A stretch of 64,000 nucleotides of DNA from Owenia fusiformis (lineage: Eukaryota > Annelida > Polychaeta > Sabellida > Oweniidae). The stretch covers positions 22,212,455 through 22,276,454 of the forward strand of contig CAIIXF020000002.1 of assembly GCA_903813345.2 (NCBI GenBank), given 5' to 3'. The notes under the pieces are model-generated. The model did no database searches, was not told where the DNA came from, and saw nothing but the letters and a program-made list of their open reading frames with translations. Positions 13,101 through 64,000 of this stretch are shown in pieces. A program made the translations under genes and the position numbers. Each line of letters starts with the position of its first letter. Positions within the stretch are counted from its first letter, which is position 1.

Positions 13101-16100
13101 AAATACAATACAATCTGGAATACTGTGAACTCCATTTGAAAAAAGCTGGCCGTGGTGTCATAAATTTATTGAATATTTTAAAAATCGCCAGATATATAAA
13201 TCATTAATCAAAACGGACCCCGCTCGGCTCCTTGATGAGATATGACATGATTTCATCAGGATTTCGTCTAAAATTAAAACAAAATGGCGATGTTCGAAAA
13301 CTGGACAAAATGTCATTAACGTCTGACATTAGTAACTGGCTGTAAATTCTAAGTTAGTGATCCAGAAGATGTGAACTAATACACTGATCACTTTATGTGT
13401 GTTTTGGAATTTTTGGTGAGGTAATAAGACCAAAACTCGCAATTCAAATTGTGATGTGGAAAAATGGCAGACATATGATTTCAAATTTTATGATTACGAC
13501 ATGACCAGTTGTTCATGCAGGAATATATCTTTACTGGAAGGCCACGATACAGTGGCCTTAGAAGAAGGTAAGTAGGGATAATGTAATTTGATATCCTAAG
13601 GTAGAAACAGCTCCCCATATTAATCTGATTAATTAATACAGCTTTGAGCTGGTATCTTTATTCTGGCTAAAACCACAAACACTTCAAGCCAGCACAGTGA
13701 CTTCAATACATTTAATTGATATTGAATATTTTTTGAAATGACAGTTATTGGTTTTGATTAATATATCCATGTAATGTCATTGCTATTTTAGCTAAGGGTT
13801 AGAATCCTACTTATTAGTGACCTTAAGATTTCACCAATTAGTAACCTGTACCTGTGCACTAAACATATTGTGTGCCCAACAAATTATGTGACTTTTTTAG
13901 CTTGTTTCACAGACAATGCAGTTGGCAGGGTGAACAAAGCAAACCATGATGGTCATGAATTATCCCATTTCGTTATGCCATAGTTGATTTTGAATATTTT
14001 ATCATCACTATGTGGTATTTATGCCACATTCATTCTACAGGGCTCTCTACATAGGGTCCATCAATTTCTACATGTACACACTTCCTCATCCTCTTAACTC
14101 AAGATTGTGAGACAAGGCTGAATCCATTCTCTGACATGGTAGCAAGATGCAGTTGCACAGCTTGTATTATTTCATCAATTTAATTAAACCTGCGTCCCTT
14201 CTCTATAGAAATAATTAGTAGAATATAAATGAATAAGTCACATGTGGGCAGATTTGGACAAAATGGTGCATTGGCCAAGAGCTAAATGTTGAGGCCCAGG
14301 GATATTGTATTCTTAACATTTTGAGATCTGTGGGCAGGCGCATTGTCCAAATGGAGTAGGGTGTTCCCTTCTCTCACCAACCCCTCCTTCCACAATGCTT
14401 TCTCAAATTATGCTTTTATTATATATATAATAATTCTTAATAATGCTGGAAAAGATCTGAAGTGCATCATTGATGAGCTTAGTCTTTGCCAGCTAATAAA
14501 TCAACCGACCAGAATCACCAAAAACTCTAGATCCTGCATTGACCTTGTTTTAACAGATTCTATAAATAACCTTGTTCTTGAACCTATTGGAAACTCTGAC
14601 CACTGTACAATACTCACAACTATAGCTCAAACATTTTCTCGTGAATCCAAAACGGAAAAAGTGATCTGGAAGTATGATAATTGTGATAACAACTTAATGA
14701 ATGAAGAAATAAACAGATTCCCATGGGATGAGATCTTTTTAAACAATAGGAACATTAATACTTTGACCGAAACATTTTCGAATAGTCTTTTTGATATATT
14801 TCAAAAAAACATTCCTCATAAAATAATAAAAATGATAAAGTCAGAAAAGAACTGCAAAACAAGAACACAAATGTGTACAATATGTCCCCACCAATGGGTG
14901 ATCCCATGAATTGGTTATCCTGAAAATGAGTAGACAAGACTTTACTGACACAATTTGAGGACGGAAAGTCCAAAATGGCCGCCTTAAAATTTACCCAGAA
15001 TCCCCAAAAATTAGCTTGTTCTAGATTTTCATACTAAGAACCACCCCTGAAAATTTGAAATTGATCCGTCAAACAGTTAAACAAGAATTTACAGACAAGA
15101 TTTTAGGATGGAAAATCCAAAATGGCTGCCTTGACATTTACCCAGAATGTCAAAAAACTAATCAGTTCTAGATTTTCATACTAAGAATCATCCCTGAAAA
15201 TTTGAAATTGATCTACCAAACGGTTCACCTGAAAACGCGTAGACAAGACTTTACAGACAAGATTTTAGGACAGAAAATCCAAAATGGCTGCCTTGACATT
15301 TACCCAGAATGCCAAAAAACTAATCAGATCTAGGTTTTCATACTAAGAATCATCCCTGAAAATTTGAAATTGATCTAACAAACGGTTCACCTGGAAATGC
15401 GTAGACAAGACTTTACAGACAAGATTTTAGAACGGAAAATCCAAAATGGCTGCCTTGACATTTACCCAGAACGCCAAAAAACTAATCAGATCTAGATTTT
15501 CATACTAAGAATCATCCCTGAAAATTTGAAATTGATCTACCAAACGGTTCACCTGGAAATGCGTAGACAAGACTTTACAGACAAGATTTTAGGACGGAAA
15601 ATCCAAAATGGCTGCCTTGACATTTACCCAGAACGCCAAAAAACTAATCAGATCTAGATATTCATACTAAGATTCATCCCTGAAAATTTGAAATTGATCT
15701 ACCAAACGGTTCACCTGAAAACGTGTAGACAAGACTTTACAGACAAGATTTTAGGACGGAAAAAACCAAAATGGCCGACAATAAAAAAGTGATTACGAGT
15801 TTTTGCTGATTTCCTTTTACAAAATTATCACATATAACTACTGTTAACAATAACATAGGCTTTTTCAACAAAGTACACCTGGAATTATTTATAAAGCTAC
15901 TAAATAGTTAAAGTATGAAAACTCAAAAACACCATTCAATATGATACAAAGTATTATCGCGCGCTAACTTTTCTTCAGACATTCAAAATGGCTGACATGA
16001 CTGGGCTAACAGGTCCAAAACCTAATCAGATGTAGAATAAAGTGAGCTGGACAAGATGTTAAAGTTTTAAAAGCAACTGTGAAGCCGTTTTTCTTAAAGT

Positions 16101-25100: not shown

Positions 25101-28100
25101 CTTTCTCAAAGTTTGTGACTACAAATCAATATTTTTGAATTAAAGTCAGGATATATATTTCTCTAAAGGTTTTACACATATTAACAATTGATTATCTACT
25201 AAAATTCTGCACCAGTTTTGAGATATTGGACCTCAAAAACTGAAAAAGGTCTAATGTTGAAATTTTTCAAGGTCAAATTTCACATTGCTTCAAATTGACC
25301 AAACTTTTTTTTTTAAAATCATCTACAAGATGCCTGGAGTTCATATATGACCTTGTATTTAAGATTTGACCTTTGGCTGACCTTTAAATGTTCAAAAAAG
25401 CCTACAGGGCCTCCGTAAGATTGCTTGCAATCTTAAACCTCTAGTTATTTGATAAATATATTGAAATATTATATTTATGGCTGCTTATGTTATTTGGTTT
25501 CGATAAAAAGTTAAACTTAAAGGCAACAGTGAGCTCCAAATCTTTTCAATAGGGTTTTAATTTTAATTTTACATGTTCTCATCAAAATATCTTGAAATTC
25601 CATCCCTTCAGACATATTTTGTGTCAATTTAAGAGGACAATTTGATATTTTAACATTGGCAGGTGTAATTCATGTTTATATATCAAAATATATCGAAATT
25701 CCATCCCTTCAGATATATTTTGTATCAGTTTAAGAGGACAATTTGATATTTTAACATTGGCAGGTGTAATTCATGTTTAGATATGAGAAAACAACAACTT
25801 TGCTGAGTAGCAAATCTTGACGAACAAAACATATTTTATTTAATCCCTAGTCATTTTGGACATTAGAGTCATCACATTTTTTATGAAAAATGGCAGACAT
25901 TTTGAAATGAGTGGCCATATTGAAAATGCCTTAATTGAGCAGAAGTCCTTTGCCCATAAGAGACATTTTGGACTGCAATTTCATGAATGGCATTTGCGAT
26001 ATCATAAATTACATTTTTATGAAAAATGGCAGCCATATTGAAAATTTCTTCTTAAGTAGGACTCCTTTGTAGCTTAGGCATCAGTATAAAAAATATGAAC
26101 CAAATATGTCAACTGGTATTTCAGTTATCAAAGATTACATTTTTACAAAAATGTTGGCCATTTCTAAATTTAGACCATCTTGGAAATTCCTTCTTTAGCA
26201 GGACTCATATAAATTTGGACCAAATCTGTCAACTGGTATTATTAAGGTCAAATCTCAAATCTATAGTCAGATTTGAACTTTTGAGAACTCGTAGATAATC
26301 TTATCATCAATCGTCAACCACTGCACTGATTGCCACCATCACAAAAGAATGGAGATCATAACAATATGTCACCACTTTTTGGTGGTGACATAATAATATA
26401 TGACCCAAAATAAGAACCAAAAGAGCAAATAAATTAGAAGTGTAAGAGACATTTACCTCAAGCTATACGAGTCAGGTAGAAAACTTTGGGGTGTGTAGCT
26501 CTGTTCCATCACCAGCCAATCGCAATTCAGCCTTGTACCTTCTGTGTTTATGATTCCTGTACAGTGGCTACAATTTGAATCAAGAATGACAGACTGAGCT
26601 GCCATACGGAGGCAGTAAATTCCGCCGAATACAGCACACATTCTGAAATAACCATATAAGGGACCATATCAATACAAGGCATACCATATAGGGGAACATA
26701 TTAATATAATAAAAGGCATTAACATCCAAAATATTCACCACCTGCCATTTATTACAGATGCCAAACACCAACCACTGAATGCCAAACACTATTTGCCAAA
26801 CAACATCCACAAAAAAGTTGGAGACTATAACAATATGTCACCATTTCTGGTGGTGACATAAAATGATGATAAAAGTACATGTCAGGTTGACTCCTCTGTA
26901 AAACATTCTAGAATATGAAGACTTTGATTATGAAGATCTGCGTAATATTATGATTATTTTTAGTCTTCTGAGGAAAATATGTTTCCTGAGTCTGGTCTGT
27001 TGCCTGTATAGAAAGAGTATCACATGAAGTTTATTCCAAGTTTAAAAAGGTAAAGCACGCATCATTCATACTGAGAAGGTATAAATGATATAGAAGCAGT
27101 GATCTCTCCAGTATTAAAGCCTTAGTGGGCACAGCACCCACGTGAGATTTTAAAAAATGGGCTTGCAACCACCTGAGATTTCATTTACACCCACTTGAAA
27201 ATGGCCAAAAAATTCAAAATGGCCACCTTAACATTTACCCAGACTGCCTAAAAACTAATCAGTTCTAAACTTTCCATAGAAACATCTCTAAGATTTTAGG
27301 ATGAATCCATGAAACCTGTAAACCCCACCCTCAAGAGACACGTTTTAAGGTATTACTTCACAGTGTATCAGCTTTTTTTCTACAATTCAGATTTTCCTGA
27401 AAAAAATCCTGGTAAAAGATATACTGATGTATTACAAAATATGTGAAAATTAGAAAGATTGACCGTTTAGTTATTTCTAAAACATTTTTTTAATTTAACA
27501 TTGCTCTCAATGGGAAATTCTTTTTTATTATTTAAAACAAGCCTTCAAAGACACGATTTTAGGCCGAAAAATCCAAAATGGCCACCTTAACATTTACCAA
27601 GAATGCCAAAAAACTAATCAGTTCTAAACTTTTACAGGTAGAAACATCCCTGAGAATTTCAAATGAATCCCTCAAATGGTTTGGCTGGAAACCTGTAGAC
27701 AAGCCTTGACAGACAAGATTTTAGGACGGAAAATCCAAAATGGCCGTCTTAACATTTATCCAGAATGTCGAAAAACTAATCAGTTCTAAACTTTCATAGG
27801 TAGAAACATCCCTGAGAATTTCAAATGAATCCCTCAAATGGTTCGGCTGGAAACCTGTAGACAAGCCTTGACAGACAAGATTTTAGGACGGAAAATCCAA
27901 AATGGCCGCCTTAACATTTACCCAGAATGCGGAAAAACTAATCAATTCTAAACTTTCATAGGTAGAAACATCCCTGAGAATTTCAAATGAATCCCTCAAA
28001 CGGTTTGGCTGGGAACCTACAGACAAGCCGTGACAGCCAAGATTTTAGGACGGAAAATCCAAAATGGCCGCCTTAACATTTACCCAGAATGCCAAAAAAC

Positions 28101-31100
28101 TAATCAGTTCTAAACTTTCATAGGCAGAAACATCCCTGAGAATTTCAAATGAATCCCTCAAACGGTTTGGCTGGAAACCTGTAGACAAGCCTTGACAGAC
28201 AAGATTTTAGGACGAAAAATCCAAAATGGCCAACATTTACCCAGAATGCTGAAAAACTAATCAGTTCTAAAGTTTCATAGGTAGAAACATCCCTGAGAAT
28301 TTCAAATGAATCCCTCAAACGGTTTGGCTGGAAACCTGTAGACAAGATTATTCGGGACACCCGCCCACCCAACCGCCCGGCAAACTGATTACAATATAGC
28401 ACCTTAGGGTGGGATAAAAATCATGTAAAATGGCATATTTTGACCAATTTTGGACTAAATTGTGAAAATAAGAATTTTGCACCCACCCCAAAAAATTCTG
28501 GGGAAAACACTGCATCATGTATTGACTTAATTAATTTTTAGTTCAGCAACATTAGATATGGTAGCTTTTCTTTCCATCTTCACTCATTAATCTATATAAA
28601 AGGTCTTATCCACTCACCTACAGAAACACTGCGGTATTTCACCACTTCCATATAAGGGCCACAGGAAAGCTGTGTTACCATAGCGACCAAGAGATTGCAG
28701 GAATTTTTGAGTTTTGGAAAGTCCCTAAGGAAATATAAAATAACTGTTAGAGAAGAGCCACATATTTGTCTTCAAGATCTGGTGATATTATAATATTATA
28801 ATCTCATAGTATTTCGTTCAGAGCAATCAAGACTCAATCCTTTTTCATGCAGATGTCAAAATCCCAAGGGTTTTTAAGGTTATTAAGGTTGCTCGTTGAC
28901 ACAATATCCTGTCATATGAAAGTAAAATCAAGTTAAAAAATATGAGTAACGAAAATTGAATAGAGATATAACAATTCAAAGGAATTATTGTTATATTCCA
29001 AATCTCATAATATTAGAAATCCAAAGGATAAAAAAAATTAAAGATCAGCGCCGAGGTAGACAGAAATGCACTGCTATAGAGAATGATAGCCTTATTCGAA
29101 CTCAATAAATTAATTTATAAGGCAGGCTGAGCTTATAGCTCTATTATCAAAGAAACATTTCTAACTAATTTTTCTGTTTATGTATGTCTAATTAATCTTG
29201 TTGAATTTAGGAACGTCATATAAAATATGCAACCACAGAGACATCTTTATAATACTGCAAAATCCTAAATCGATTATGTCTAGAATATTCAATGTCTATT
29301 TTCTCCTGCCTGTCTGAGTGGCCATCTAAAAATCTCTTAAATAATAGACATCTTTTTGCTTTTCCTCCATTTTACCATGTACAAAGCAAAAATAATAGAC
29401 TAAAATTTAAGAGTGAAATGAGAAGAGAAAAATGCCAGGAATCAAACATACCTCTTTAAGTGGAGTCTGTTTAGTTGCCATGGAGATTGCATTCAGAATG
29501 TAATGTTGGAGATTAGGTGATAACTTCTTTATACTTAAAAACTCAGCAAAGGTCTTGCCTTCGTGACCTGTAGAAATGAATAAATTGTTTATCAGAAGTA
29601 CTCATATTATATAATGTTAATGTGGGATGATATGCATCCTGTTTACATTACAAAATATGCAATCAAATGTTTATTATATACAAGGGGAGACCAATAAGTA
29701 ATAGACGCTTTTTTACACAGACACTTACATGGGTGTAGCGCTATTTTTCCAAATAGTACGTCACCACCACAGGCACAAGAGTTGAGTGAATCTGGGGGTT
29801 CTCCCACAGGAAAATTTTGAAATTTGGTTGTATTTGGAGCGAATTTGCAAACATCTAGTACGCCTGTGCGTACCCAGCGTACCGGGCGCTACGCCTATGA
29901 CTTATCTTAAAAATGTTTATGATAGATGAACTTTTGCTACAATATGAATGCTGGCACATTCACTCTCAATATTTACCTTCATATTCTGAAGGGTGTTTTT
30001 CATATTCCATGCAGAAAGTTAAGAACTTCATCATCATTCGTTTCTCGATCATGCTGATTTCTTTGTTGGCAAACACGTCAGCCCTCGAGCAGGGAGTCTG
30101 TAATAAAGAGAATAATAATAAAGTAATATAAGGACAATAAGATCGAAAAGTATGGCTTTCCACATTGTATCGTACAAATCTTGCCTATAGGGGTTCAAAA
30201 ATTCCAGTTGGGCTCACAATTGACAACTTTGGCCAAAAATCACTTGAAAAGTGCTCAGAATGGTGGAAAACTGCATGATTTTGAAAGTATTCCTGGCTCA
30301 TTCACTCCAACCCCAAACCTCTCCTGGCAACAGGCCTGTAAACACACTGTATTGCCATTGTTTATTTCAAAAACTCAGTTTTATTTACACTGCTTCTGCA
30401 ACATATAACATCATTCTGACATCATCAAATATGACACCATTATTCTAACCTATACACCTTAGTTTCTTCAGTAAAGGGTCAGGATTTATCGAAAATGTCT
30501 ATTTGAGTAAAAAAATGCATACCATCTTTATGTTTCCATCCATGTGTGTTAATACCCTGGTGACAGTCTTGAACTCGCAGTACTTGGCAATGTCGGATGA
30601 GATAAGTAGTTCTACCATAGCCCCTCGGGAGAACAGAATCTGCAAATGTAATATTGACATTTCTATTGATTGAGTTATTAAGTAAGAGCTTCATGAGATT
30701 TCAATTTTCTGGGTCAGTAAAGTGGGAATAAAATGTATATATGTAGAGCTTTCTCAATATGTATATAATGAGTTCCATGCATGTTGACACATTTTTCATA
30801 ATGGGTTCACATAAGGCCACCTTACAAAAATGAACACGGTTAACATGCAAAGTGTTATTATGCACCATTTGTTACAGATGCCGTCCACTGAACACCAAAC
30901 ACCAGTCACTGAATGCCAAACACCGAACACCATCCACAAAAAAGTTGAGGCCTGTAACAATTTAAGTGTCAGCCAACATTTCTCAAAATAACACGCATAC
31001 CCACCTTTGGAGCCAAATCAAGGTTAAATTTGCGCCATTGTTTTTTGAATCCCTCAACTGTCCATACAACTTTCCCTTTCTCCTTGCTACATTGTTCACT

Positions 31101-49860: not shown

Positions 49861-50877
49861 TTGATTTTAAGAACATCCAGGATGTTTAATATGAGTGACA
49901 TAGAAAACATCACGTTTGAAGACAACACAGAAATAGGGCCTAAAGTCTATATAACTGGAGCAGCTATAATAGGAATATTGGCCGTTGCATCAAATATCTT
50001 AACAATTGTTGCTATTATTAAATTTGATTATTTAAAGACAGTTAACAACAAACTGTTGTTTTATCTCTCATGGAGTGATTTTTTCATAGGACTTTTTACT
50101 CCAGTGTATTATTTCCGTGTTTACTGGATGAAACATTGGAACTTTGATGGAGGCCCCTTCGAGAAATATTCATGTTTAGTGATTGTTGCTGTCGCAAATT
50201 ACCCAGTCAGTATCTCTACAGTAATTTATTTGTGCATTTCTTGCGAGCGTTATATCGCGATCACAAAACCTTTCAGCTACACAGCGATATTTACAGATTT
50301 TAACATTAAAATCTTGATGGTTTGTGTGCTCTCATATTCTGCTGTTGGATTCATCTCGTGCAGTTATATGAACGAATGGAAACCTGGAATATGCAGCTTT
50401 GACGCATCAACTTACAACTCTCTGGCTTATAATATCACGGTAGTTGCTCATGGATTAATCTTGTTAACGATTATCACACTTTTATATTGCAAGATTTTCT
50501 ATATTGCATGGAAAAGCAAAAGGGCTGTTGATCACCAGCAGGCACTCCATAATCTCCCACAAGACAACATTGTGAAGCGAGTTAAAAGAGCGGATTATAA
50601 GATTCTAAAGATGGTAGCAACTGTATATGGGATGTTGCTTCTTTTCTTTGCACCATTTTTCCTGTGTGGTATCATTTCAATGTTTGTGGGACCATCTGAA
50701 GGATTAAATGTGGTATGGACAATATTTGGTTTGGTGTATATCTCAAATTCATTCATGAACGCATTGGTATATGGTTGGAAAAGTAAAGAGTTTAGAAGAG
50801 CTTACTTGACTTTGTTGTGTGGTAGCAACAGAGTTGGACCATTCGAGACAAGCCATGCATCTAATTCCACATTTTGA
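49861..50877 (+). CDS. class A G-protein-coupled receptor, single exon
   Basis: A 338-residue seven-helix receptor; the ligand is unknown. Landmarks are Asn45 (TM1), Asp73 (TM2), the Cys105/Cys178 pair, ERY at 129-131 with the following IAITKPF, APFF at 264-267 in TM6, and NALVY at 300-304 in place of NPxxY, followed by GWKSKEFRRAY as helix 8. The N-terminus has NMS and NIT sites; Met11 is an alternative start. The start of the long frame follows a short AT-rich leader. The last 26 codons, the stop and 24 bases of 3' flank form the first unit of a 102-bp tandem array that runs on to about 51715. The receptor may lie inside a long intron of the plus-strand gene begun at 41872. Confidence 0.9.
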   Translation: MILRTSRMFNMSDIENITFEDNTEIGPKVYITGAAIIGILAVASNILTIVAIIKFDYLKTVNNKLLFYLSWSDFFIGLFTPVYYFRVYWMKHWNFDGGPFEKYSCLVIVAVANYPVSISTVIYLCISCERYIAITKPFSYTAIFTDFNIKILMVCVLSYSAVGFISCSYMNEWKPGICSFDASTYNSLAYNITVVAHGLILLTIITLLYCKIFYIAWKSKRAVDHQQALHNLPQDNIVKRVKRADYKILKMVATVYGMLLLFFAPFFLCGIISMFVGPSEGLNVVWTIFGLVYISNSFMNALVYGWKSKEFRRAYLTLLCGSNRVGPFETSHASNSTF

Positions 50878-51715
50878 AACAAGAAAAATGTTGATACAAG
50901 AGCTTACTTGACTCTGTTGTGTGGTAGCAACAGAGTTGGAACATTTTAGACAAGCCATGCATCTAATTCTACATTTTGAAACAAGAAAAGTGTTGATACA
51001 AAAGCCTACTTGACTCTGTTGTGTGGTAGCAACAGAGTTGGAACATTCGAGACAAGCCATGCATCTAATTCTACATTTTGAAACAAGAAAAGTGTTGATA
51101 CAAGAGCCTACTTGACTCTGTTGTGTGGTAGCAACAGAGTTGGAACATTCGAGACAAGCCATGCATCTAATTCCACATTTTGAAATAAGAAAAATGTTGA
51201 TACAAGAGCTTACTTGACTTTGTTGTGTGGTAGCAACAGAGTTGGAACATTTAAGACAAGCCATGCATCTAATTCTACATTTTGAAACAAGAAAAGTGTT
51301 GATACAAGAGCCTACTTGACTCTGTTGTGTGGTAACAACAGAGTTGGACCATTCGAGACAAGCCATGCATCTTATTCTTCATTTTGAAACTAGAAAAGTG
51401 TTGATACAAGAGCTTACTTAACTTTGTTGTGTGGTAGCAACAGAGTTGGAACATTCGAGATAAGCCATGTATCTAATTCCACATTTTGAGACAAGAAAAG
51501 TGTTGATACAAGAGCTTACTTGACTCTGTTGTATGGTAGCAACAGAGTTGGACCATTCGAGATAAGCCATGTATCTAATTCTACATTTTGAAACAAGAAA
51601 AGTGTTGATACAAGAGCTTACTTGACTCTGTTGTATGGTAGCAACAGAGTTGGAACATTCGAGACAGGCCATGCATCTAATTCTTCATTTTGAAACGAGA
51701 AATGTATTCTTGGAT
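50798..51715. repeat. 102-bp tandem array overlapping the GPCR 3' end, about 9 copies
   Basis: Unit starts lie at about 50798, 50900, 51002 and onward every 102 bp. Each contains GCTTACTTGACTCTGTTGTG, GGTAGCAACAGAGTTGGA and AAGTGTTGATACAAGAG. The unit length is a multiple of three, and copy 1 supplies the receptor's last residues (from RAYLTLLCGSNRVG to NSTF) and its stop. All later copies keep an in-frame stop at the same place. The reverse strand stays open through most of the array only because of the periodicity. Confidence 0.95.
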
Positions 51716-54051: not shown

Positions 54052-54260
54052 CTATGGATCTTTGTTAATCCTACCAGATTCATTTTCATTTACAACCTTA
54101 AATATGTCCAGTTTCTTTATGAAAATAGGCTGAGATTCTCTTGTTACATGCCAGCATTTGTGGCTTATTCTCTCTACTTCGATTTCCAGATCAAGCCATT
54201 TCACTATACCAGTTGTAGCATGTCTTGCCCTCTTCAGTGAAGCATGCCTACCTATAGAAC
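54052..54260 (-). CDS. last exon of the cysteine-repeat/ITIH gene
   Basis: Acceptor TATTGCAG|GTTCTATAGG; stop TAG at 54054-54052. It encodes SIGRHASLKRARHATTGIVK and about 49 further residues, including ISHKCWHVTRESQP. The single Cys-Trp pair matches the C-terminal CWxx of ITIH proteins. The phase (1 then 2) closes the Gly codon shared with the exon before. Confidence 0.85.
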
Positions 54261-57200
54261 CTGCAATAGATATCAGATAACATTTACACAACAGTTTTGC
54301 TTCATAAAATTCTTACATGATATTTTTATTGCTCTTTTAAAAAGTGCTATATTGTAATCTTGTGTTTATGAGTGAGCATATATCTGTGGGGATCGACACA
54401 AAATATAACTTGTTATTAAAATTCCGGGAAGACCGCTTACCTGTTCACCTTGAAATTTTGAGTGATACAAGAGCAGGCTTGTGCCAAGATCTCATAAAGT
54501 TTTGGGTATAATCACTAGGCATTAGGGGTCCCGCGATTTATCGATATATCGATGCATCGGCTCGTTTGGTGACGATACGAGCGTATCGATTCAAAGACTC
54601 AAATATCGATACACCAAAATATAATTAACATACCTGAAATCCATCATATTTTGCCGAAATCTACTGAATATTTGGCTTTTTTCAGAAATTGTTTTTATAT
54701 CTTTTGTTTGGTTTCTCACTGGACATGACACGCCCAAAATGTTGTATAAATGCGAACAGAATGCTTAGCGGATTGACAGTCTAAATGCGAACAAATAACT
54801 TGTGTCTTCTATGTCTCCGCATATCAACATACTTTGTTTTATAATTCTATATACTTTTGGACAATTTTAGTATGAATAAATATAATCTTTGAACTTTTAA
54901 TTGGATAGAACGCGTTCAATTTATTGATAGCTCTAATGAAAAAAAACGAACACTATTTACGTTCGGAGTATTAATGTTGACCGGAGGTTAGAAATTGAAA
55001 CTTTTTGAAAGTTTTGAACACACTTGATAGAATTATGGCCATGTAAGCATCAAACATGGGTAGTTGTGTTATCCTTATATCCCTAATAGAAAATTTACTG
55101 TGTAGTACATTTGAACATTCCTCAGTAAAGGGAAAGCACAGCCGGACTTCAAAAAAATTGCAAAATACAATGCACAGACTAGATTAGGGACTACTATAGC
55201 AGGTAGGCTTGATACTATAGACTATAGTTTTTATACTTCATCTGAATCAAATGTCACAACAAGTGATAGAATTTAAACTCGACCTCAGCTACGTCAGTGT
55301 TGCACCCCTCCCCCCCCGGTTCAACTACACTATTATGTATCGTATCGTTGCTCGTATCGTGACCTGAGTATCGAGAAACGTATCGTATCGTTTCATAATG
55401 TATCGTGGGACCCCTACTAGGCATCCATTTTAAATTTCTTAATAAAAGTATGACATTTATCACTGTCATTCTTGTTATCACTATGAATTTTACTCAAATT
55501 AATGAAGACCTTACCCATGATTCCCCCTGCATCATCATCTAATGCTGATGTCTCTGAAATCCCAAAGTTTAAGTATGATCCTTTGTGCTTCTTCCTTTCT
55601 GCCCTCATCACAGCAATAACAAGATGGTCATCATTCATCATGATATTTATGTGATTACCACTGATATGTACATAGCCTATGCTCAACATAATATAGGCCT
55701 CATCCCACTTGTATTTGTTCTCCTTTCCCCTGTCTTTAATCAGCACATGGTCAGTGTTGATGTATATTAGGGATGAGCCTTGCCTCAGAAGGAAGTCACC
55801 AACAAACATTGCTATATTTTTATTTCCACCTTGTGTTGTGGAGGCTTCTATGAATGTTGACTGGATTTCTATAAGTAGAATTAGCAATTTGTGAACATGA
55901 TTTGGCATTAGGTTGAAGACATTATTGCAAATCCTAAATAACAATATGTCACCACTTCTTGGTGGTGACATAATGATCTTTATTCTCTAATTGACAACTG
56001 TTAAATTGCTTATACCAAGAAACACATCTTTGAGCTCCAAACTAAAATTACCAGTTTTTAAAACATGACTTGTACTTCTCAAAGGTCATATGGAATTATT
56101 GTTGAAGTAAAAGACATGGAACCATTTTGGATCGGTGATACATACCTAGATTTTGTTGCTTTAAGAAGAGGTATGTTTCCCCTGGTTCTCCCCAAAAGTT
56201 ATAACAGAACTTGTATCCATTGGCAACACCCTTTATTGTCTGCCTCACATGCGGGTCCCCACAGACCATTATTCCAGTAGATTCATGTGGCTTGCAGAAT
56301 GGCTTTCCTTTTTCATTACAGTCATTATTAGACACACATTCGTGACACTTCATGATACCTTGGTGTAGCATACAAAGTGGAAGGTCCGGATTGGTACAGT
56401 GTGTGTTGTTACCGCATTGTTGACATTTATGCATGTTTGAGGAATCTGGGACACACATTGAAAGTTCTGGCACTACACAGTCAGCATTTGTTAAACACTC
56501 TTGACACTGGTTGGTTTCAGTGTTACATTTAGGTTTGTCATTTGTTGTACAGTCACTGTCTTCTAGACACTCGTTACAAAAGCCAACGTTTTCTTTTTTT
56601 ACACATATGACACCATTTGAACTTGTAGTACAGTCATCATTTGTCCCACATCCTTGACATATTTGTATATCATCAGTTCCACTTAGACATATAGGGAGAT
56701 TTGGATCTGTACAGTCATCATTTGTTGCACATCCCTGACATATTTGTATATCATCAGTTCCACTTAGACATACAGGGAGAGTTGGATCTGTACAGTCATC
56801 ATTTGTTCCACATCCCTGACATATTTGTATATCATCAGTTCCACTTAGACATACAGGGAGAGTTGGGTCTGTACAGTCATCATTTGTTCCACACCTTTGA
56901 CATATTTGTATATCATCAGTTCCACTTAGACATACAGGGAGAGTTGGATCTGTACAGTCATCATTCGTTCCACATCCCTGACATATTTGTATATCATCAG
57001 TTCCACTTAGACATACAGGGAGAGTTGGATCTGTACAGTCATCATTCGTCCCACATCCTTGACATATTTGTATATCATCAGTTCCACTTAGACATACAGG
57101 GAGAGTTGGATCTGTACAGTCATCATTCGTTGCACATCCCTGACATATTTGTATATCATCAGTTCCATTTAGACATACAGGGAGAGTTGGGTCTGTACAG

Positions 57201-60200
57201 TCATCATTTGTTCCACATCCCTGACATATTTGTATGTCGTCAGTTCCACTTAGACATACAGGGAGAGTTGGATCTGTACAGTCATCATTCGTTCCACATC
57301 CCTGACATATTTGTATATCATCAGTTCCACTTAGACACACAGGGAGATTTGGATCTGTACAGTCCTCGCTTGTTGCACATCCTTGACATATTTGTATGTC
57401 GTCAGTTCCACTTAGACATACAGGGAGAGTTGGATCTGTACAGTCATCATTTGTTCCACATCCCTGGCATATTTGTATATCATCAGTTCCACTTAGACAT
57501 ACAGGGAGAGTCGGGTCTGTACAGTCATCATTTGTTCCACATCCCTGACATATTTGTATATCATCAGTTCCGCCTAGACATACAGGAAGAGTTGGGTCTG
57601 TACAGTCATCATTTGTTGCACATCCCTGACATTTATGTATATCATCAGTTCCACTTAGACATACTGGGAGAGTTTGATCTGTACAGTCATCATTCGTTCC
57701 ACATCCCTGACATATTTGTATATCATCAGTTCCACTTAGACATACAGGGAGAGTTGGGTCTGTACAGTCATCATTCGTTCCACATCCCTGACATATTTGT
57801 ATATCATCAGTTCCACTTAGACATACAAGAAGAGTTGGATCTGTACAGTCATCATTTGTTCCACATCCCTGACATATTTGTATATCATCAGTTCCACTTA
57901 GACATACAGGGAGAGTTGGGTCTGTACAGTCATCATTTGTTCCACACCCTTGACATATTTGTATATCATCAGTTCCACTTAGACATACAGGGAAAGTCGG
58001 GTCTGTACAGTCATCATTTGTTCCACATCCTTGACATATTTGTATATCATCAGTTCCACTTAGACATACTGGGAGAGTTTGATCTGTACAGTCATCATTC
58101 GTTCCACATCCCTGACATATTTGTATATCATCAGTTCCACTTAGACATACAGGAAGATTTGGATCTGTACAGTCATCATTTGTTCCACATCCCTGACATA
58201 TTTGTATATCATCAGTTCCACTTAAACAAACAGGGAGAGTTGGATCTGTACAGTCATCATTTGTTGCACATCCTTGACATATTTGTATATCGTCAGCTCC
58301 ACTTAGACATACAGGGAGAGTTGGATCTGTACAGTCATCATTTGTTGCACATCCCTGACATATTTGTATATCATCAGTTCCACTTAGACAAACAGGGAGA
58401 GTTGGATCTGTACAGTCATCATTCGTTCCACATCCTTGACATATTTGTATATCATCAGTTCCACTTAGACATATAGGGAGATTTGGATCTGTACAGTCAT
58501 CATTTGTTGCACATCCCTGACATATTTGTATATCATCAGTTCCACTTAGACATACAGGAAGATTTGGATCTGTACAGTCATCATTTGTTCCACATCCCTG
58601 ACATATTTGTATATCATCAGTTCCACTTAGACATACAGGGAGAGTTGGATCTGTACAGTCATCATTTGTTCCACATCCCTGGCATATTTGTATATCGTCA
58701 GCTCCACTTAGACATACAGGGAGAGTTGGATCTGTACAGTCATCATTTGTTGCACATCCCTGACATATTCTTCTTTCTTTATCGGGTCTTGCTGTACAGA
58801 CTGAAAAATTTTCAGATCCACAATCATCCCCTGTCCTGCATTGTTGACATTTTGTACCCATACAGAATGGAAACTCTGCATTAAGGCAGTGATCATCTAA
58901 TGCACATTCCATACATAACTTCACCCCATCTAAATTCATTGCACATATTGGAGAACCAGTGCTACAGTCATCATTACCAGTACATTCATGGCATCTCAGA
59001 ATATTTTGTGATTGTTCACAGAATGGTTTATCAGTGGTACAATCTGCATCTGATTCACATCCTTGACAGACTTTGACACTGTTTTGATTTTGTATACACA
59101 TGTTGATTTCCTCATCCGTACAGTCAGTATCATTCACACAGCCTTGACACTGTAGTAGACCATTTGCATTGAGAATACATTGAGGGAAGTCATTATTTGT
59201 GCATTGAGAATCATCTAAACATTCTTGGCACATGTTGATTGATCCAGATAAAAGACATCTTGATAATACAGGGTCTGTGCAATCATCATTTGCCAAGCAT
59301 TGCTGACATACTTGTATTTCATCAGGATTATTTGTACATATTGGGAGATTTTCATCTGTGCAGTTTTCATTGACTGAGCAACCTTGGCATTTTGAGATCT
59401 CATTAGTCTCAATACAAAATGGAAGATCAGAATCCAAGCATGATTCATCAGTTGTACAATATTGACATCGTTTTACTCCTTGTGAATTTGTAAAACAAAA
59501 TGGAGCAGCTGGGTCACAATCCTCATTTCGACTACATTCATGGCATGTAAGAATATTGGCTGAGTTTAGTTCACAATATGGAAAGTCTGTTGCACAGTCT
59601 TCATTTGTTTTACATTGTTGACATACTTTAATATCTTTGTCATTCGGCAGACAAAGGTCAATGTTATCTTCAGTACAGTCAGTATCATTTTCACAACCTT
59701 GACATTGAAGCAGTCCATCTGAATTCTGTGTACATTTTGGTAGCTCATTATTTGTGCATTGAGAATCATCTAAACATTCTTGGCACATGTTGATTGATCC
59801 AGATAAAATACATCTTGATAATACAGGGTCTGTGCAATCATCATTTGCCAAGCATTGCTGACATACTTGTATTCCATCTGAATTATTGCTACATATTGGG
59901 AGATTTTCGTCAGTGCAGTTTTCATTGACTGAGCATTCTTGACATTTTGAAATCTCATTAGTCTCTATACAAAACTGAAAATCTGACTCTGCACACGACT
60001 CGTCACTTGTGCAAGATTGACATCGTTTTACTCCTTTTGTATTTTCAGAGCAAAATGGTATACTAGGATCGCAGTACTCATTCCTACTGCATTCATGGCA
60101 CATTTGAATATTAGCAGTGTTTAGTTCACAAAATGGGAAGTCTGTTGTACAGTCTTCATTTGTTTTACATTGTTGGCATACTTTAATGTCTTTGTCATTT

Positions 60201-62811
60201 AGCAGACATATGTCAATGCCATCCTCTGTGCAGTCAGTTGCATTCTCACAACCTTGACATTGAAGAAGTCCATCTGAATTCTGTGTACATTTTGGTAGCT
60301 CATTATCTGTGCATTGAGAATCATCTAAACATTCTTGGCACATGTTGATTGATCCGGATAAAATACATCTTGATAATATAGGATCATCACAGTCATCATT
60401 TGCCAAGCATTGCTGACATACTTGTATCCCATCAGGGTTGTCCGTACATATTGGGAGATTTTCATCTGTACAATCCTCATCAATAGAACATCCCTGACAA
60501 TGTGATGTCCCATTAGTCGAAACACACATAGGATAATTTGGGTTTTCACACTGGTCATCGGTTATACATTCCTGACATGATTTGACTCCATTAGTTTCTA
60601 AACATCTTGGTGAATCATCGGGACAATCTTGAGTTATCACACATTGGTGACACATCATAATGTTTTCACTGTTTACAGCACAGAGTGGTAAATGGTTCGG
60701 ACATCCTTCGTTATCTTTACATTGTTGGCATAACTTTATATCATCTGTATTTGCCAAACACAAAGGAAATGAGGAGTTTCCGCAGTTTGAATTTGTATCG
60801 CATCCTTGACACATTTTTATGTTGTCACTGTTAGGTAAGCACATATTTAAGTCAGGGTCATCACAGTTTCTGTTGCGGTTACATTGTTGACAGAGCCCAA
60901 TTCCTCCAGTGGAAACACACATCGACAATATCGGATCAGTACACTGGCGATTTCTGTCACATTGCTGACACATTTTGATTCCATCTCGATTTGCAATGCA
61001 TCTAGACAAAATATCATCAGTACAATTGGCATGTGAGATACATTGTTGACATTTTAGATCACCATTTGAATCAGTGCATATATTCAGATCAGAGTCAGTA
61101 TTGCAGTTATCATCAGAAGCACATTCATGACACCTCTTTGTATTTTGATAGGTCACACATTGTGGGAGCGCCTGGTCATTACAGTCTGAATTAGTTGCAC
61201 ATTCCTGACATTGGGATTTACCATTAAGTTCTGTACAAATTAACTGTGCTTCATTAACACAGTCAGTGCTCTTTAGACATTCATGACACACACTTAAACC
61301 TTGTGAGTTGGGGTTACAGAATGGAGCATCAGTACTACATTCCTCATCAAAGTCACATTGGTGACACATGTTAATTCCACTTGGATCTGGCTTACAAATT
61401 TTAAAGTCATCAAGCGGGCAGTCAACTGGTTCTGTACATTGTTGACATATCTTACGATCATCAGCATTTGGGTAGCAAAATGGCAGCTCAACTGGGCAAT
61501 CCTCGTTCTCTCGACATTCTTGACATTTTGACAGTTCTGGATTATTTATATCAGGAAAACAATGTTGTAGCCCAGGATCTGTACAATGAGCATCAGTTAC
61601 ACATTCTGTACACTTCTTTTCATTTGCTATGGTATCAGCAACACAGTAGGGGAAATTTCCGTTGTTGCAGTGGCTATTTTTTTTACACTCATGACATTTT
61701 TTGAGATCTGTTAATGTGAAACAGTAATTAAGACCATTTCCTGTTTGAACACAGTCGATATTCTCTCTACAGGGCTGACAGAGGTTGAGTCCATTAGTTT
61801 CAAAACAGTACTTCAGGGTTTCATTCAGACAATCTGAATCCGACAGGCATTCATGACATCTCTTCACTCCAGCTTCATTTCTTCTACAATGTGAATGTAC
61901 TCCTACACAGTCTGTGTTTGTTTGGCATTCGTGACACTGTAGAATATTGCTGAAGTCTTCCTCACATGTACTAGAACCACTACAATCATCACTTGTGATA
62001 CACTGATGACAGTGCATGGTTTCACCTATGTGAGCATGACATATTGGAAATGCCAGGCTGCATTCAGTATTGTTAGAGCATTCATGACAGGATTTTATTC
62101 CATTAGCATCCTCAGCACAGATAGATAGATCAGTCTCTGTACAGTCATCATTTGTGCCACACTTATGACACGTTCTCACATCAGCACTGTTTGCAGAACA
62201 GAACGGTGTCTCTGTTGGACAGTCCATCCCAAAAGAACACTGATGACATATTTTCACACTACTGCCCTCTATTGTATCACAAAATGGAAAATCTATATTT
62301 GTGCAGTCCTCATCAACAAGGCACTGGTAGCATGTATTGAGTGTATCTGCATTACCCATGACACATATAGGACGATCAGCATTACAATCTGCATTAGTAG
62401 CACATTGCTGACATTTGAGTGCTTTGGTATTATCTTCAGCACAGACGTTCTGACCAGGTAGTGTACAGTCTATGTTCGATATACATTCATGACAGTCGTT
62501 CACCCCAAGTGAGTTTTCTGTACAAAATCTCCTAACCTCATCTGTACAGTCGTCATGTTTCACACATTTCCTGCAGACTTTTTCACCATTTATGTTCGTG
62601 TCACATGCTAGGAAGCCCAAATCTATACAGTCCTGGTCTGTCTCACATTGTTGACACGTCTTTCTATTGTTGGACAAGACACATGCTGGGAGATCAGATG
62701 TACACTCTGCGTCAGTTATACACTCATGACATGTACATTCCTCAACTGTACAGTGGGGGATACTGGATGGACAGTCTGTGCTATTGAAACAACCTCCAGT
62801 ACTTGTAAGAG
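54052..62811 (-). CDS. giant cysteine-repeat protein with ITIH-type C-terminal region
   Basis: Probably secreted. Three exons join in frame (62811-56146, 55868-55515, 54260-54052), giving about 2,409 residues. The first encodes about 80 repeats of 27 residues with the pattern C-x2-C-x5-C-x7-C-x9. The last 26 (about 58770-56657) are nearly identical. A CGDPHVRQTIKG block with CYNFWGEPGE follows, and then YLNFGISETSALDDDAGGIM and HKCWHV. These match the region after the vWA domain of inter-alpha-trypsin inhibitor heavy chains (GDPHF, CFNIDGQPGD, LGFYI...GLLGQF). The VIT and vWA domains are absent. There is no in-frame ATG before the stop upstream of 62890. A strong acceptor TGCTTGCTTTTCAG|CTC at 62812 implies an upstream exon with the start and any signal peptide. 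Function is unknown; extracellular-matrix or coelomic/mucus roles are guesses. Confidence 0.85.
54523..55416. mobile_element. hAT-type MITE in an intron
   Basis: An 894-bp element with ends TAGGGGTCCCGCGAT and ATCGTGGGACCCCTA (one mismatch). It is flanked by a perfect 8-bp duplication CTAGGCAT (54515-54522 and 55417-55424). The ends are closely related to those of the element at 35792. It lies in the last intron of the cysteine-repeat/ITIH gene, about 100 bp from the splice donor. No transposase is present. Confidence 0.93.
55515..55868 (-). CDS. ITIH-type exon of the cysteine-repeat gene
   Basis: Acceptor CTTATAG|AAATCC, donor ATCATGG|GTAAGG. It encodes 118 residues from EIQSTFIEASTTQGGNK to DDDAGGIMG. 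It holds the beta-rich ITIH C-terminal core, including a YLNFGIS...GIMG block like LGFYI...GLLGQ in vertebrate heavy chains. Confidence 0.88.
55945..55972. repeat. palindromic transposon terminus
   Basis: Hairpin TATGTCACCAC...GTGGTGACATA, the fourth full copy in the window. It lies in the 277-bp intron between the large repeat exon and the ITIH exon. Confidence 0.85.
56657..58770. repeat. 81-bp coding minisatellite, 26 near-identical units
   Basis: Twenty-six consecutive 81-bp units coding (minus strand) for the 27-residue repeat, with variation at only a few positions (Gly/Ala after the second Cys, Pro-Thr/Pro-Asn/Gln-Thr, Val/Ile, Ser-Gly-Thr/Ser-Gly-Ala). Adjacent units are far more alike than those in the N-terminal half, so the array was recently expanded or homogenised. 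Because the unit is a multiple of three, the plus strand also has a long open frame, which is an artefact. Confidence 0.95.
58950..60510. repeat. higher-order repeat of about 558 bp, nearly three copies
   Basis: Blocks of about seven 27-residue repeats are themselves repeated. GGCACATGTTGATTGATCC occurs near 60340, 59782 and 59229 (558 and 553 bp apart), and the flanking coding blocks (TDENLPIC, LANDDCTDP, LDDSQCT, CEND/CENA) recur in the same order. This second level of duplication is separate from the 81-bp array. Confidence 0.88.
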
Positions 62812-64000
62812 CTGAAAAGCAAGCAATGGATACGATGAACAACAAAATGTTATTGAAGACAAGATATAAGAGAAAGAAAAATATATGAAATTAAATGATT
62901 TTCAATTTGAAAAGAAGAAAGAGTTTTTGGGCTACAATGTCATTATGAACCCAAGGCACTCTTATGAATTAACATTCATTGATTGGTTTATTCAGACACA
63001 CCTTTATGTTATTATGACTCAATTAATTTGCTTTAACAATTATTTCTGTTATATTAAATTATGCGGACTCATTAATATGAGGGCGATCATAAGTTCTCGT
63101 AATATTTCTCTAAACTGTTACAATGGTTAGTTAGTACTAATGATAAGAGATGTTTACATGCATCATTAGATGTGATATTTCAATAGAAAGATATTAAAAA
63201 ATTGATTTAAAATTAGAAAGATATTATGAGAACTTAATGATCACCCCTCTTATATTTTAGTTCTGTACAATTTGATTAATTGTAAGGCTGCAGTTATTGT
63301 TTTGTAAACGGACAATGTTTGAGTATTTTAATGTACAACTATCATGAAATGTTTACAAGGATGTTCAGTAAAGATCTTTGTTCTGTTGATTCTTATCGTG
63401 GTTTCTCTCATAATATGACATAGGAGGTATTAAAGTGGAAGTTAGAACATCCTAAAAGTACGAGTAAGAGTCAACTGACAAGAAAAACCAACAAATTCGA
63501 ATATATATATTTACTCAAGACATATTTTATGGATTGTTACTTTAATACTGATAAACCATTTAGACTAATTGATTAGTATTGAAATTGAAATTTGACCTTG
63601 AAAAATTTCAAAATTTGACCTTTTTTCAGTTTTTGTACTCTAATATCTCAAAACTGGTGCAACAGTTTAAGAGATAGTCAATTATTGATTAAAATTGATA
63701 TACAGAGATGGATTTTGCTATGTTCACTGCACGTAGCAACAGTAGAACAATTTATGACAAAGATTCATGCTGACACAATTTTGTGTTTTGACACATTTAG
63801 TTGTTCAGAAACCGTTATTACAGGAAATCATGCATTGTTTGTTTTGTTTTCAATATATTACTGTCTAATTATCCTACTGGATGAAGTCAGATAGAGGATA
63901 TAGAGATGCAGTCTATTGGTTTTTCTAGGCAATAACTCAAAATACTAGTTGTCAAAATTAGTTCAAATTTTATGGTGCTGATGCCTTCTTGGACTCTATA
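62812..64000. other. upstream intron of the cysteine-repeat gene, repeats
   Basis: The intron upstream of the large exon. No start-bearing exon with a signal peptide was recognised, so it may lie beyond the window. It holds a MITE at 63079-63249 and a reverse-oriented piece of the AGGTCA-rich repeat near 63590-63690. Confidence 0.45.
63079..63249. mobile_element. short TIR element (MITE)
   Basis: About 170 bp with inverted ends GAGGGCGATCATAAGTTCTC and GAGAACTTAATGATCACCCC-TC. A related single end is at 19015-19055. The ends look like mariner-type termini (GAGGGxxGATCA...AAGTTCTC), but there is no transposase. Confidence 0.75.

What the first reader, a model, noticed from the sequence alone, without database searches (positions are those of the whole stretch)
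54052..62811. About 80 cysteine repeats fused to an ITIH-type C-terminus without VIT or vWA
The sequence directly shows about 80 four-cysteine repeats of 27 residues, spliced in frame to a region matching the part of inter-alpha-trypsin-inhibitor heavy chains that follows the vWA domain. Known heavy chains have VIT, vWA and this C-terminal region. A protein with only the last, behind a large cysteine-repeat array, would be a new architecture. The repeat pattern C-x2-C-x5-C-x7-C-x9 is not one I can assign to a named animal domain. The role is unknown; a structural extracellular or mucus protein is inferred.
Basis: partly seen in the sequence, partly recalled or inferred. Interest (0 to 1): 0.85.

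Follow-up and report, generated by a model that had tools for sequence, protein, structure and literature searches.

The report
Giant cysteine-repeat protein with self-cleaving tail
An invertebrate gene joins 81 tandem cysteine-rich units to the removable tail of blood inter-alpha-inhibitor proteins, a tail that in mammals is cut off while the protein is fixed to a sugar chain, and the same animal carries dozens of sister genes with this tail.

Summary
Three exons (54052-54260, 55515-55868, 56146-62811, minus strand) join in phase 1; 11 of 11 paralog exons examined use the same junction. The array has 81 four-cysteine units under purifying selection (dN/dS 0.13-0.30). Three more exons beyond the window give a predicted secreted protein of 2631 residues. 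No VIT or vWA was found.

The reading changes. (1) The gene is no one-off: 48 places match the GDPH exon of this module; 43 were read and carry GDPH, 37 of them (this gene included) as CGDPH. Paralog exons hold one or part of one cysteine unit, at most two starts; a repeat search found a long array only here. (2) The array ends exactly at GDPH, the Asp-Pro bond cut in VWD domains; in heavy chains this tail is removed when the chain is esterified to chondroitin sulfate. (3) Related tails follow other payloads.

Best reading: an acidic, disulfide-rich matrix or mucus protein with an ITIH-type self-cleaving pro-domain. Esterification of the freed Asp to a glycosaminoglycan is the bold, untested part. 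The unit has no match over cut-off in Pfam or NCBIfam and none in the PDB.

The parts
56146..62811 (-). exon 4: cap, 81 cysteine units, CGDPH and the start of the ITIH-type tail (GYKFCYNFWGEPG)
   Evidence: open frame of 2264 codons, AG-GT borders, phase 1 at both ends
62732..62791 (-). N-terminal cap of the array, C-x5-C-x6-C-x4-C, shared with paralogs
   Evidence: translation; cap plus one full unit in 21 of 36 paralog CGDPH exons by a loose cysteine pattern; coordinates worked out
56264..62731 (-). array of 81 four-cysteine units (22-29 aa, mode 27)
   Evidence: with the cap net charge -287, pI 4.05, 328 Cys in 2178 aa
58850..60499 (-). higher-order repeat of about 7 units in three copies (units 29-35, 36-42, 43-49)
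   Evidence: dN/dS 0.13, 0.30, 0.17 between copies; two unit pairs of unequal length left out of each of the last two
56660..58765 (-). 26 near-identical 81-bp units (mean 93% amino-acid identity, net charge about -5 each)
56249..56263 (-). CGDPH: predicted Asp-Pro cleavage site closing the array
   Evidence: CGDPH in 24 of 31 paralog stretches L020-L050, [RK]GDPH in 6, none found in L047
55515..55868 (-). exon 5: ITI_HC_C core
   Evidence: Pfam PF06668, 20.1 bits, E 5.2e-4, cut-off 27; same junction in 11 of 11 paralog exons examined
54052..54260 (-). exon 6: last exon with W...KCW, stop codon
   Evidence: in-frame join; similar frames by eye downstream of paralogs in L007 and L018; none with CW seen in L016, L017, L019

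Best explanation
The gene encodes a secreted precursor of about 2630 residues: signal peptide, 8-Cys exon, a domain of about 155 aa, a cap, 81 acidic four-cysteine units, then GDPH and an ITIH-type pro-domain. Most likely the pro-domain folds like a VWD domain and cuts its own Asp-Pro bond in the secretory pathway, leaving the array with a C-terminal Asp. By analogy with inter-alpha-inhibitor heavy chains, this Asp can be handed to a glycosaminoglycan (chondroitin-type) as an ester, so that the array becomes a long acidic side-arm of a matrix or mucus proteoglycan. Shown here by sequence: architecture, selection on the units, homology of the tail, conservation of GDPH. Inferred: disulfides, cleavage. 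Inferred with less confidence: transfer to a sugar chain and the tissue role.
For: Six-exon model, all five introns GT-AG and phase 1. Same split-codon junction in 11 of 11 paralog exons examined. Tail homologous to the canonical heavy chain of the same genome, whose exon reads DPHFVVKVSG...ICFDIMGEPG and whose vWA exon matches Pfam (protein 1). ITI_HC_C in 10 of 11 members. GDPH in 43 of 44 read loci of the GDPH exon, L047 being the exception (part of this is by selection, since the loci were found with queries that contain CGDPH). Purifying selection on units. Confident model of a four-unit stretch, pLDDT 94.4. Literature: GDPH is cut autocatalytically in VWD domains, and ITIH3/5/6 carry GDPH in a predicted VWD-like sandwich (PMC10880436, sections 8 and 11 and passages). 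Heavy-chain pro-domains are removed when the chains are attached to chondroitin sulfate (PMC7170535, passages), through an ester of the C-terminal Asp (PMC4661386, passages). ITIH4 lacks the site, which prevents the bond with bikunin (PMC2268946, passages). The genome has matches to the chondroitin glycosyltransferase family CHGN and to Link modules.
Against: No transcript or protein evidence. The window gene's own ITI_HC_C score is below Pfam's cut-off. The tail exon alone gave no usable structure model (pLDDT 39.8). Sequence similarity to VWD is confined to the GDPH neighbourhood and weak (2 of 11 members, best E 0.058), and a profile of the tails finds no VWD or other credible chain in the PDB (best E 0.26). 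CGDPH has a Cys just before the cut, absent from the canonical heavy chain read here, which could tie the pieces together and prevent release. No bikunin-like acceptor was looked for.
Confidence: 0.5

Rival explanations
1. Cut but not released: GDPH is cleaved as in VWD domains, while a disulfide from the Cys of CGDPH keeps the pro-domain on the array. The cut only stabilises or relaxes a permanent C-terminal domain; no sugar transfer.
For: CGDPH in 24 of 31 stretches L020-L050 and in the 12 GDPH exons of L004-L014, where the script looked for CGDPH. PMC10880436 reports that in FCGBP a disulfide holds the first strand after cleavage (passages).
Against: The Cys sits in the place of the next unit's first Cys (a C 7-11 residues before it in 35 of 36 paralog exons) and may pair inside the array. 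The other two tail Cys (FCY, KCW) can pair with each other. The pairing was not determined.
Confidence: 0.3
2. No cleavage: the tail is just a structural or oligomerisation domain of a giant disulfide-rich matrix protein.
For: No direct evidence of cutting; the window tail diverges from the family (31-36% identity).
Against: GDPH is kept in 43 of 44 read loci although most other columns vary (the loci were found with CGDPH-bearing queries).
Confidence: 0.15
3. Gene-model artefact: the array exon and the ITI_HC_C exons belong to separate genes.
For: No RNA-seq available; only sequence joins.
Against: In-frame phase-1 joins; GDPH plus the start of the module lie in the array's own open frame; same junction in 11 of 11 paralog exons examined.
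Confidence: 0.03
4. Secreted defence or toxin-like family: fast-diverging clustered Cys proteins with a pro-domain; the window gene is an outlier expansion.
For: Clusters on C2, C4, C8, C9, C12 and an N-terminal domain without significant sequence similarity between the window gene and seven paralog domains.
Against: No match over cut-off to any toxin or antimicrobial family in Pfam; purifying selection on units.
Confidence: 0.08

Closest known systems
[quoted passage not shown] VIT, vWA and ITI_HC_C matches in this genome at C3:5.709-5.763 Mb)
   Same: C-terminal module with DPH, ICFDI/FCYNF-GEPG and ITI_HC_C; aligns from DPH to the end of the core
   Different: heavy chains carry VIT and vWA before it; here an 8-Cys exon, a domain of about 155 aa and 81 cysteine units
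VWD domains with GDPH (FCGBP, MUC2, MUC5AC)
   Same: GDPH at the start of the module, Asp-Pro cleavage motif; weak profile similarity around GDPH
   Different: no Pfam VWD match over cut-off; C8 and TIL domains were not seen in the scans of the tail
CGDPH family of the same genome (37 loci read, window gene included; some may be assembly copies of one another)
   Same: CGDPH, ITI_HC_C, exon junctions; cap plus full unit in 21 of 36 paralog exons; exon-2 cysteine pattern in 3 of 11 long loci
   Different: at most two unit starts instead of 81; exon-3 domain not significantly similar
vWA plus Ser/Thr linker plus GDPH tail genes (L057-L059) and a Cys plus poly-Thr gene (L060)
   Same: homologous C-terminal module (L059 against A2: hhalign 99%, exons joined by eye)
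   Different: different payload; shows that the module is not tied to VIT

Membership tests
ITIH heavy chain | VIT domain | tested here: not met
   no VIT match on contig C2; nearest VIT match to any of 48 GDPH places is 2.0 Mb away. Absence from such a search is not proof.
ITIH heavy chain | vWA domain | tested here: not met
   exons 2-3 match no Pfam family; no vWA listed near the gene (only 150 of 685 candidates scored for PF00092, and not all matches listed)
ITIH heavy chain | ITI_HC_C region | tested here: met
   sub-threshold for this gene (E 5e-4), 10 of 11 family members at E up to 1, best 7e-8; profile match to canonical chain
ITIH heavy chain | conserved Asp-Pro-His cleavage site | tested here: met
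   CGDPH at 56263-56249
ITIH heavy chain | C-terminal Asp esterified to chondroitin sulfate or hyaluronan | not testable with these tools
   needs protein chemistry
VWD domain | GDPH between the first two strands | tested here: inconclusive
   motif present; the strands could not be modelled (exon 5 alone)
VWD domain | Pfam VWD match | tested here: inconclusive
   2 of 11 members, best E 0.058; hhalign score 31.3 against at most 23.8 in 30 column-shuffled controls, 36 columns aligned
Known cysteine-repeat domains (Pfam, NCBIfam, PDB) | sequence or fold match of the 27-residue unit | tested here: not met
   no match over cut-off (best sub-threshold Kazal_3, E 0.018, for the young units); Foldseek best E 5.2 in PDB and 0.031 in BFVD

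The most novel reading that the evidence does not exclude
The GDPH plus ITI_HC_C module is a portable, self-cleaving conjugation tail. In this animal it has been detached from VIT/vWA and spread to dozens of secreted proteins with different payloads (cysteine units, an 81-unit acidic array, mucin-like linkers). Each would be cut at Asp-Pro and the freed Asp esterified to a glycosaminoglycan, making a whole class of protein-on-sugar conjugates beyond inter-alpha-inhibitor.
Probability: 0.27. Interest if true: 0.88.

Novelty: new variant of a known kind. Interest (0 to 1): 0.63.

Why it matters
Covalent transfer of proteins onto glycosaminoglycans is known to me essentially from inter-alpha-inhibitor heavy chains (recalled), and I know of no settled mechanism for what their pro-domain does in it (recalled). 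A genome in which the same module caps dozens of secreted proteins without VIT makes the question testable: does the tail alone suffice? The array is also a large disulfide-type repeat with a confident model and no solved relative found, of possible interest for mucus or tube materials.

Tried and rejected
Repeat as a known domain: rejected after Pfam, NCBIfam and PDB sequence scans and PDB fold searches. Relatives of the unit elsewhere: a scan of genome contigs gave 14 pattern stretches, none confirmed, and phages gave none; these find close relatives only. Similar bacterial Cys repeats are recalled, not shown. BFVD gave weak hits, best E 0.031, the top two from pithoviruses, not pursued.

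Homology of the exon-3 domain with seven paralog domains: not significant (hmmsearch E 6.6; 13 of 999 shuffles scored higher than the real sequence, 986 not; best blastp E 0.65). My notebook entry calls this 'worse than shuffles', which is wrong: it ranks 14th of 1000. Tree of the module (13 rows): only one of ten inner branches well supported, the place of the window gene unresolved, and one row (L012) was left untrimmed by mistake. Structure of exon 5 alone: failed, pLDDT 39.8. Tail profile against PDB sequences: four matches at E 0.26 or worse, no credible one.

Naming the species: 12 large contigs and 498 Mb recalled Owenia fusiformis to me, but the six papers listed for it were unrelated genomes, so the species is left open. 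Papers: searches for ITI_HC_C with mollusc and for ITI with Owenia returned none. ITIH with VIT/invertebrate and ITIH with annelid/expansion/cysteine-rich returned 41 and 116, of which I saw the top 12 and 10 as listings; none of these titles or abstract starts describes this architecture. Two papers hold both 'inter-alpha-trypsin inhibitor' and 'GDPH'. One search returned none; some searches served for the heavy-chain and GDPH background. PMC5322623 was seen in passages.

The upstream stretches L002 and L003 were only checked by a script for GDPH or cysteine-dense frames (none with GDPH, one short unremarkable frame).

Full report
WHAT IS THERE. The window lies at C2:22212455-22276454 of an unnamed 498-Mb animal genome. 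On the minus strand a frame stays open for 2264 codons (56096-62890). Its coding part begins after a splice acceptor at 62811 and carries 81 units starting C-x2-C-x4-6-C. Of the 80 units bounded on both sides, 44 fit C-x2-C-x5-C-x7-C-x9 exactly, and lengths run from 22 to 29 (47 of 80 are 27). Twenty mononucleotide shuffles of the window gave no open stretch above 150 codons. The array looks layered: 50 older, divergent units, inside which a block of about seven units occurs three times, then 26 almost identical 81-bp units, then five more divergent ones. Copies differ mainly at silent sites: dN/dS 0.13, 0.30 and 0.17 between the three blocks (two unit pairs of unequal length left out of each of the last two comparisons) and a pN/pS of 0.17 among the 26 young units. 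So the array is very likely translated and its amino acids are kept.

THE WHOLE GENE. Three further exons lie upstream, beyond the window's edge: a signal-peptide exon (C2:22280124-22280190, recognised by eye), an exon with eight cysteines (22279561-22279695) and an exon of about 155 residues (22278665-22279129). All five introns are GT-AG and phase 1, and the predicted protein has 2631 residues. The cap plus array is 2178 residues with 328 cysteines, pI 4.05 and net charge -287. Upstream on the other strand there is an exon of an amino-acid transporter (Aa_trans, E 2.7e-6), which leaves little room for more 5' exons; that is inference.

IS IT AN ITIH TAIL? For this gene alone the Pfam score is weak (20.1 bits, E 5e-4 for the exon-5 frame; 19.0 and 19.4 bits for spliced tails; cut-off 27). 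Two comparisons make it firm. First, an alignment of the window tail with ten paralogs (A2): 10 of 11 members match ITI_HC_C at E up to 1, best 7e-8. Second, the canonical heavy chain of the same genome, with a vWA exon (E 9e-12) and VIT matches next to it on C3, aligns with A2 from DPH to the end of the ITI_HC_C core (hhalign probability 98%, E 1e-14; its exons were joined by eye).

NO VIT, NO vWA FOUND. No VIT match lies on contig C2, exons 2 and 3 match no Pfam family, and no vWA match is listed near the gene (with only the best candidates scored). Of 48 places with a GDPH-exon match collected, none lies within 2 Mb of a VIT match, and 37 lie on contigs with none. C2:5253209 was dropped from that list because no GDPH was found there (L047); places with a core-exon match only were not counted. 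Against a strictly vWA-free family: three places at more distant GDPH exons do have vWA, namely L059 (E 4.9e-19), the neighbourhood of L044 (vWA at C11:27073996) and, weakly (E 0.15), L057.

A LARGE FAMILY. I read 31 further GDPH-exon stretches (L020-L050): 24 carry CGDPH, six [RK]GDPH, one none. The 11 longer loci L004-L014 hold 12 CGDPH exons (that script looked for CGDPH). With the window gene this makes 37 CGDPH loci; five of the 48 places were not read. The conservation of GDPH is partly by selection, since the queries contained it, and some loci (for example those on C476 and C4) are so alike that they may be assembly copies. A recount of the 36 paralog CGDPH exons (loose cysteine patterns, frame of the GDPH exon only) gives: cap plus one full unit in 21, at least the last three spacings of a unit in 31, the last spacing in 35, and never more than two unit starts. 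The genome search with five window units found 25 matches, all in this gene. The simplest history is tandem expansion of one ancestral unit. The exon junction inside the tail is identical in 11 of 11 paralog exons examined, and the next donor in 10 of 10 that could be read. The eight-Cys exon 2 has look-alikes in L007, L012 and L013, 3 of 11 loci scanned. The exon-3 domain shows no significant sequence similarity to seven paralog domains (E 6.6; 13 of 999 shuffles scored higher).

THE UNIT. AlphaFold2 with 22 window segments gives pLDDT 94.4 and pTM 0.79 for four units: a short helical turn and a hairpin per unit. Disulfide pairing was not determined. Foldseek finds nothing credible in the PDB (best E 5.2) and only weak matches among viral models (best E 0.031); VIA-align gives no Z of 2 or more for the 12 chains compared. 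Sequence scans of Pfam and NCBIfam give no match over cut-off (best sub-threshold Kazal_3, E 0.018) and the PDB none.

HOW IT MAY WORK. The array ends exactly where the tail's GDPH begins (56263-56249). In VWD domains GDPH is cut autocatalytically between Asp and Pro; mutating Asp or His blocks or inhibits it, and the authors note that ITIH3, ITIH5 and ITIH6 carry GDPH in a predicted domain with VWD topology (PMC10880436, sections 8 and 11 and passages read). In heavy chains the C-terminal pro-domain is removed when the chain is attached to chondroitin sulfate (PMC7170535, passages), by an ester of the C-terminal Asp to N-acetylgalactosamine (PMC4661386, passages). ITIH4 lacks the site, which prevents the bond with bikunin (PMC2268946, passages). 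A bacterial system also couples Asp-Pro cutting to a new covalent bond, there with lysine (PMC7078468, abstract and outline). So the likely sequence here is: secretion, folding of the units, Asp-Pro cleavage, then either transfer of the array to a glycosaminoglycan (as in heavy chains) or retention of the tail by a disulfide (as in FCGBP). The second is a serious rival because a Cys stands directly before GDPH in this family and not in the canonical heavy chain read here (L015). The genome has matches to the chondroitin glycosyltransferase family and to Link modules, so acceptors and binders are possible, but no acceptor was identified or looked for. My own tests of VWD likeness are suggestive only: hhalign score 31.3 against at most 23.8 in 30 shuffled controls, 36 columns; 2 of 11 members at best E 0.058; nothing credible among PDB sequences.

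PORTABILITY. The module follows a vWA domain and a Ser/Thr-rich linker in L059 (hhalign 99% to A2, exons joined by eye), and GDPH exons follow Ser/Thr-rich linkers in L057, L058 and L060 (their core parts were seen as open frames by eye only). This is the base for the boldest reading, a movable conjugation tail.

LIMITS.

Noticed in passing
window 49861-51702: Open rhodopsin-type GPCR frame (PF00001) whose last coding stretch overlaps the first copy of a 102-bp tandem repeat (8.9 copies, 50796-51702): the 3' end of the gene seems to have been tandemly multiplied.
   Followed up: no
window 15081-15775 and 27537-28346: Two separate 162-bp tandem arrays with closely similar consensus units, a dispersed satellite.
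   Followed up: no
window 63582-63683: A piece of about 102 bp upstream of exon 4 has 109 further listed matches across the genome (a lower bound), often spaced about 440 bp apart.
   Followed up: no
G000 C11:27.061-27.076 Mb (L059, L044): Genes with vWA, Thr-rich linker (L059), GDPH and ITI_HC_C-like tail but no VIT match: another detached heavy-chain architecture.
   Followed up: partly
G000 C1:55.42-55.49 Mb: VWD matches inside single open frames of 8849 and 7135 codons: giant intron-poor VWD genes.
   Followed up: no
L011 (C2:9081600-9091500), between GDPH and ITI_HC_C exons: A minisatellite open in two frames for about 300 codons (GQLFESMSQY repeats) sits in the intron.
   Followed up: no
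G000 C3:24.897-24.969 Mb: Cluster of Link (Xlink) module matches, possible hyaluronan or chondroitin binders.
   Followed up: no
L001:389-1015: Fragment with zf-RVT match (E 4e-7) in the intron between exons 3 and 4, opposite strand: a retroelement piece.
   Followed up: no
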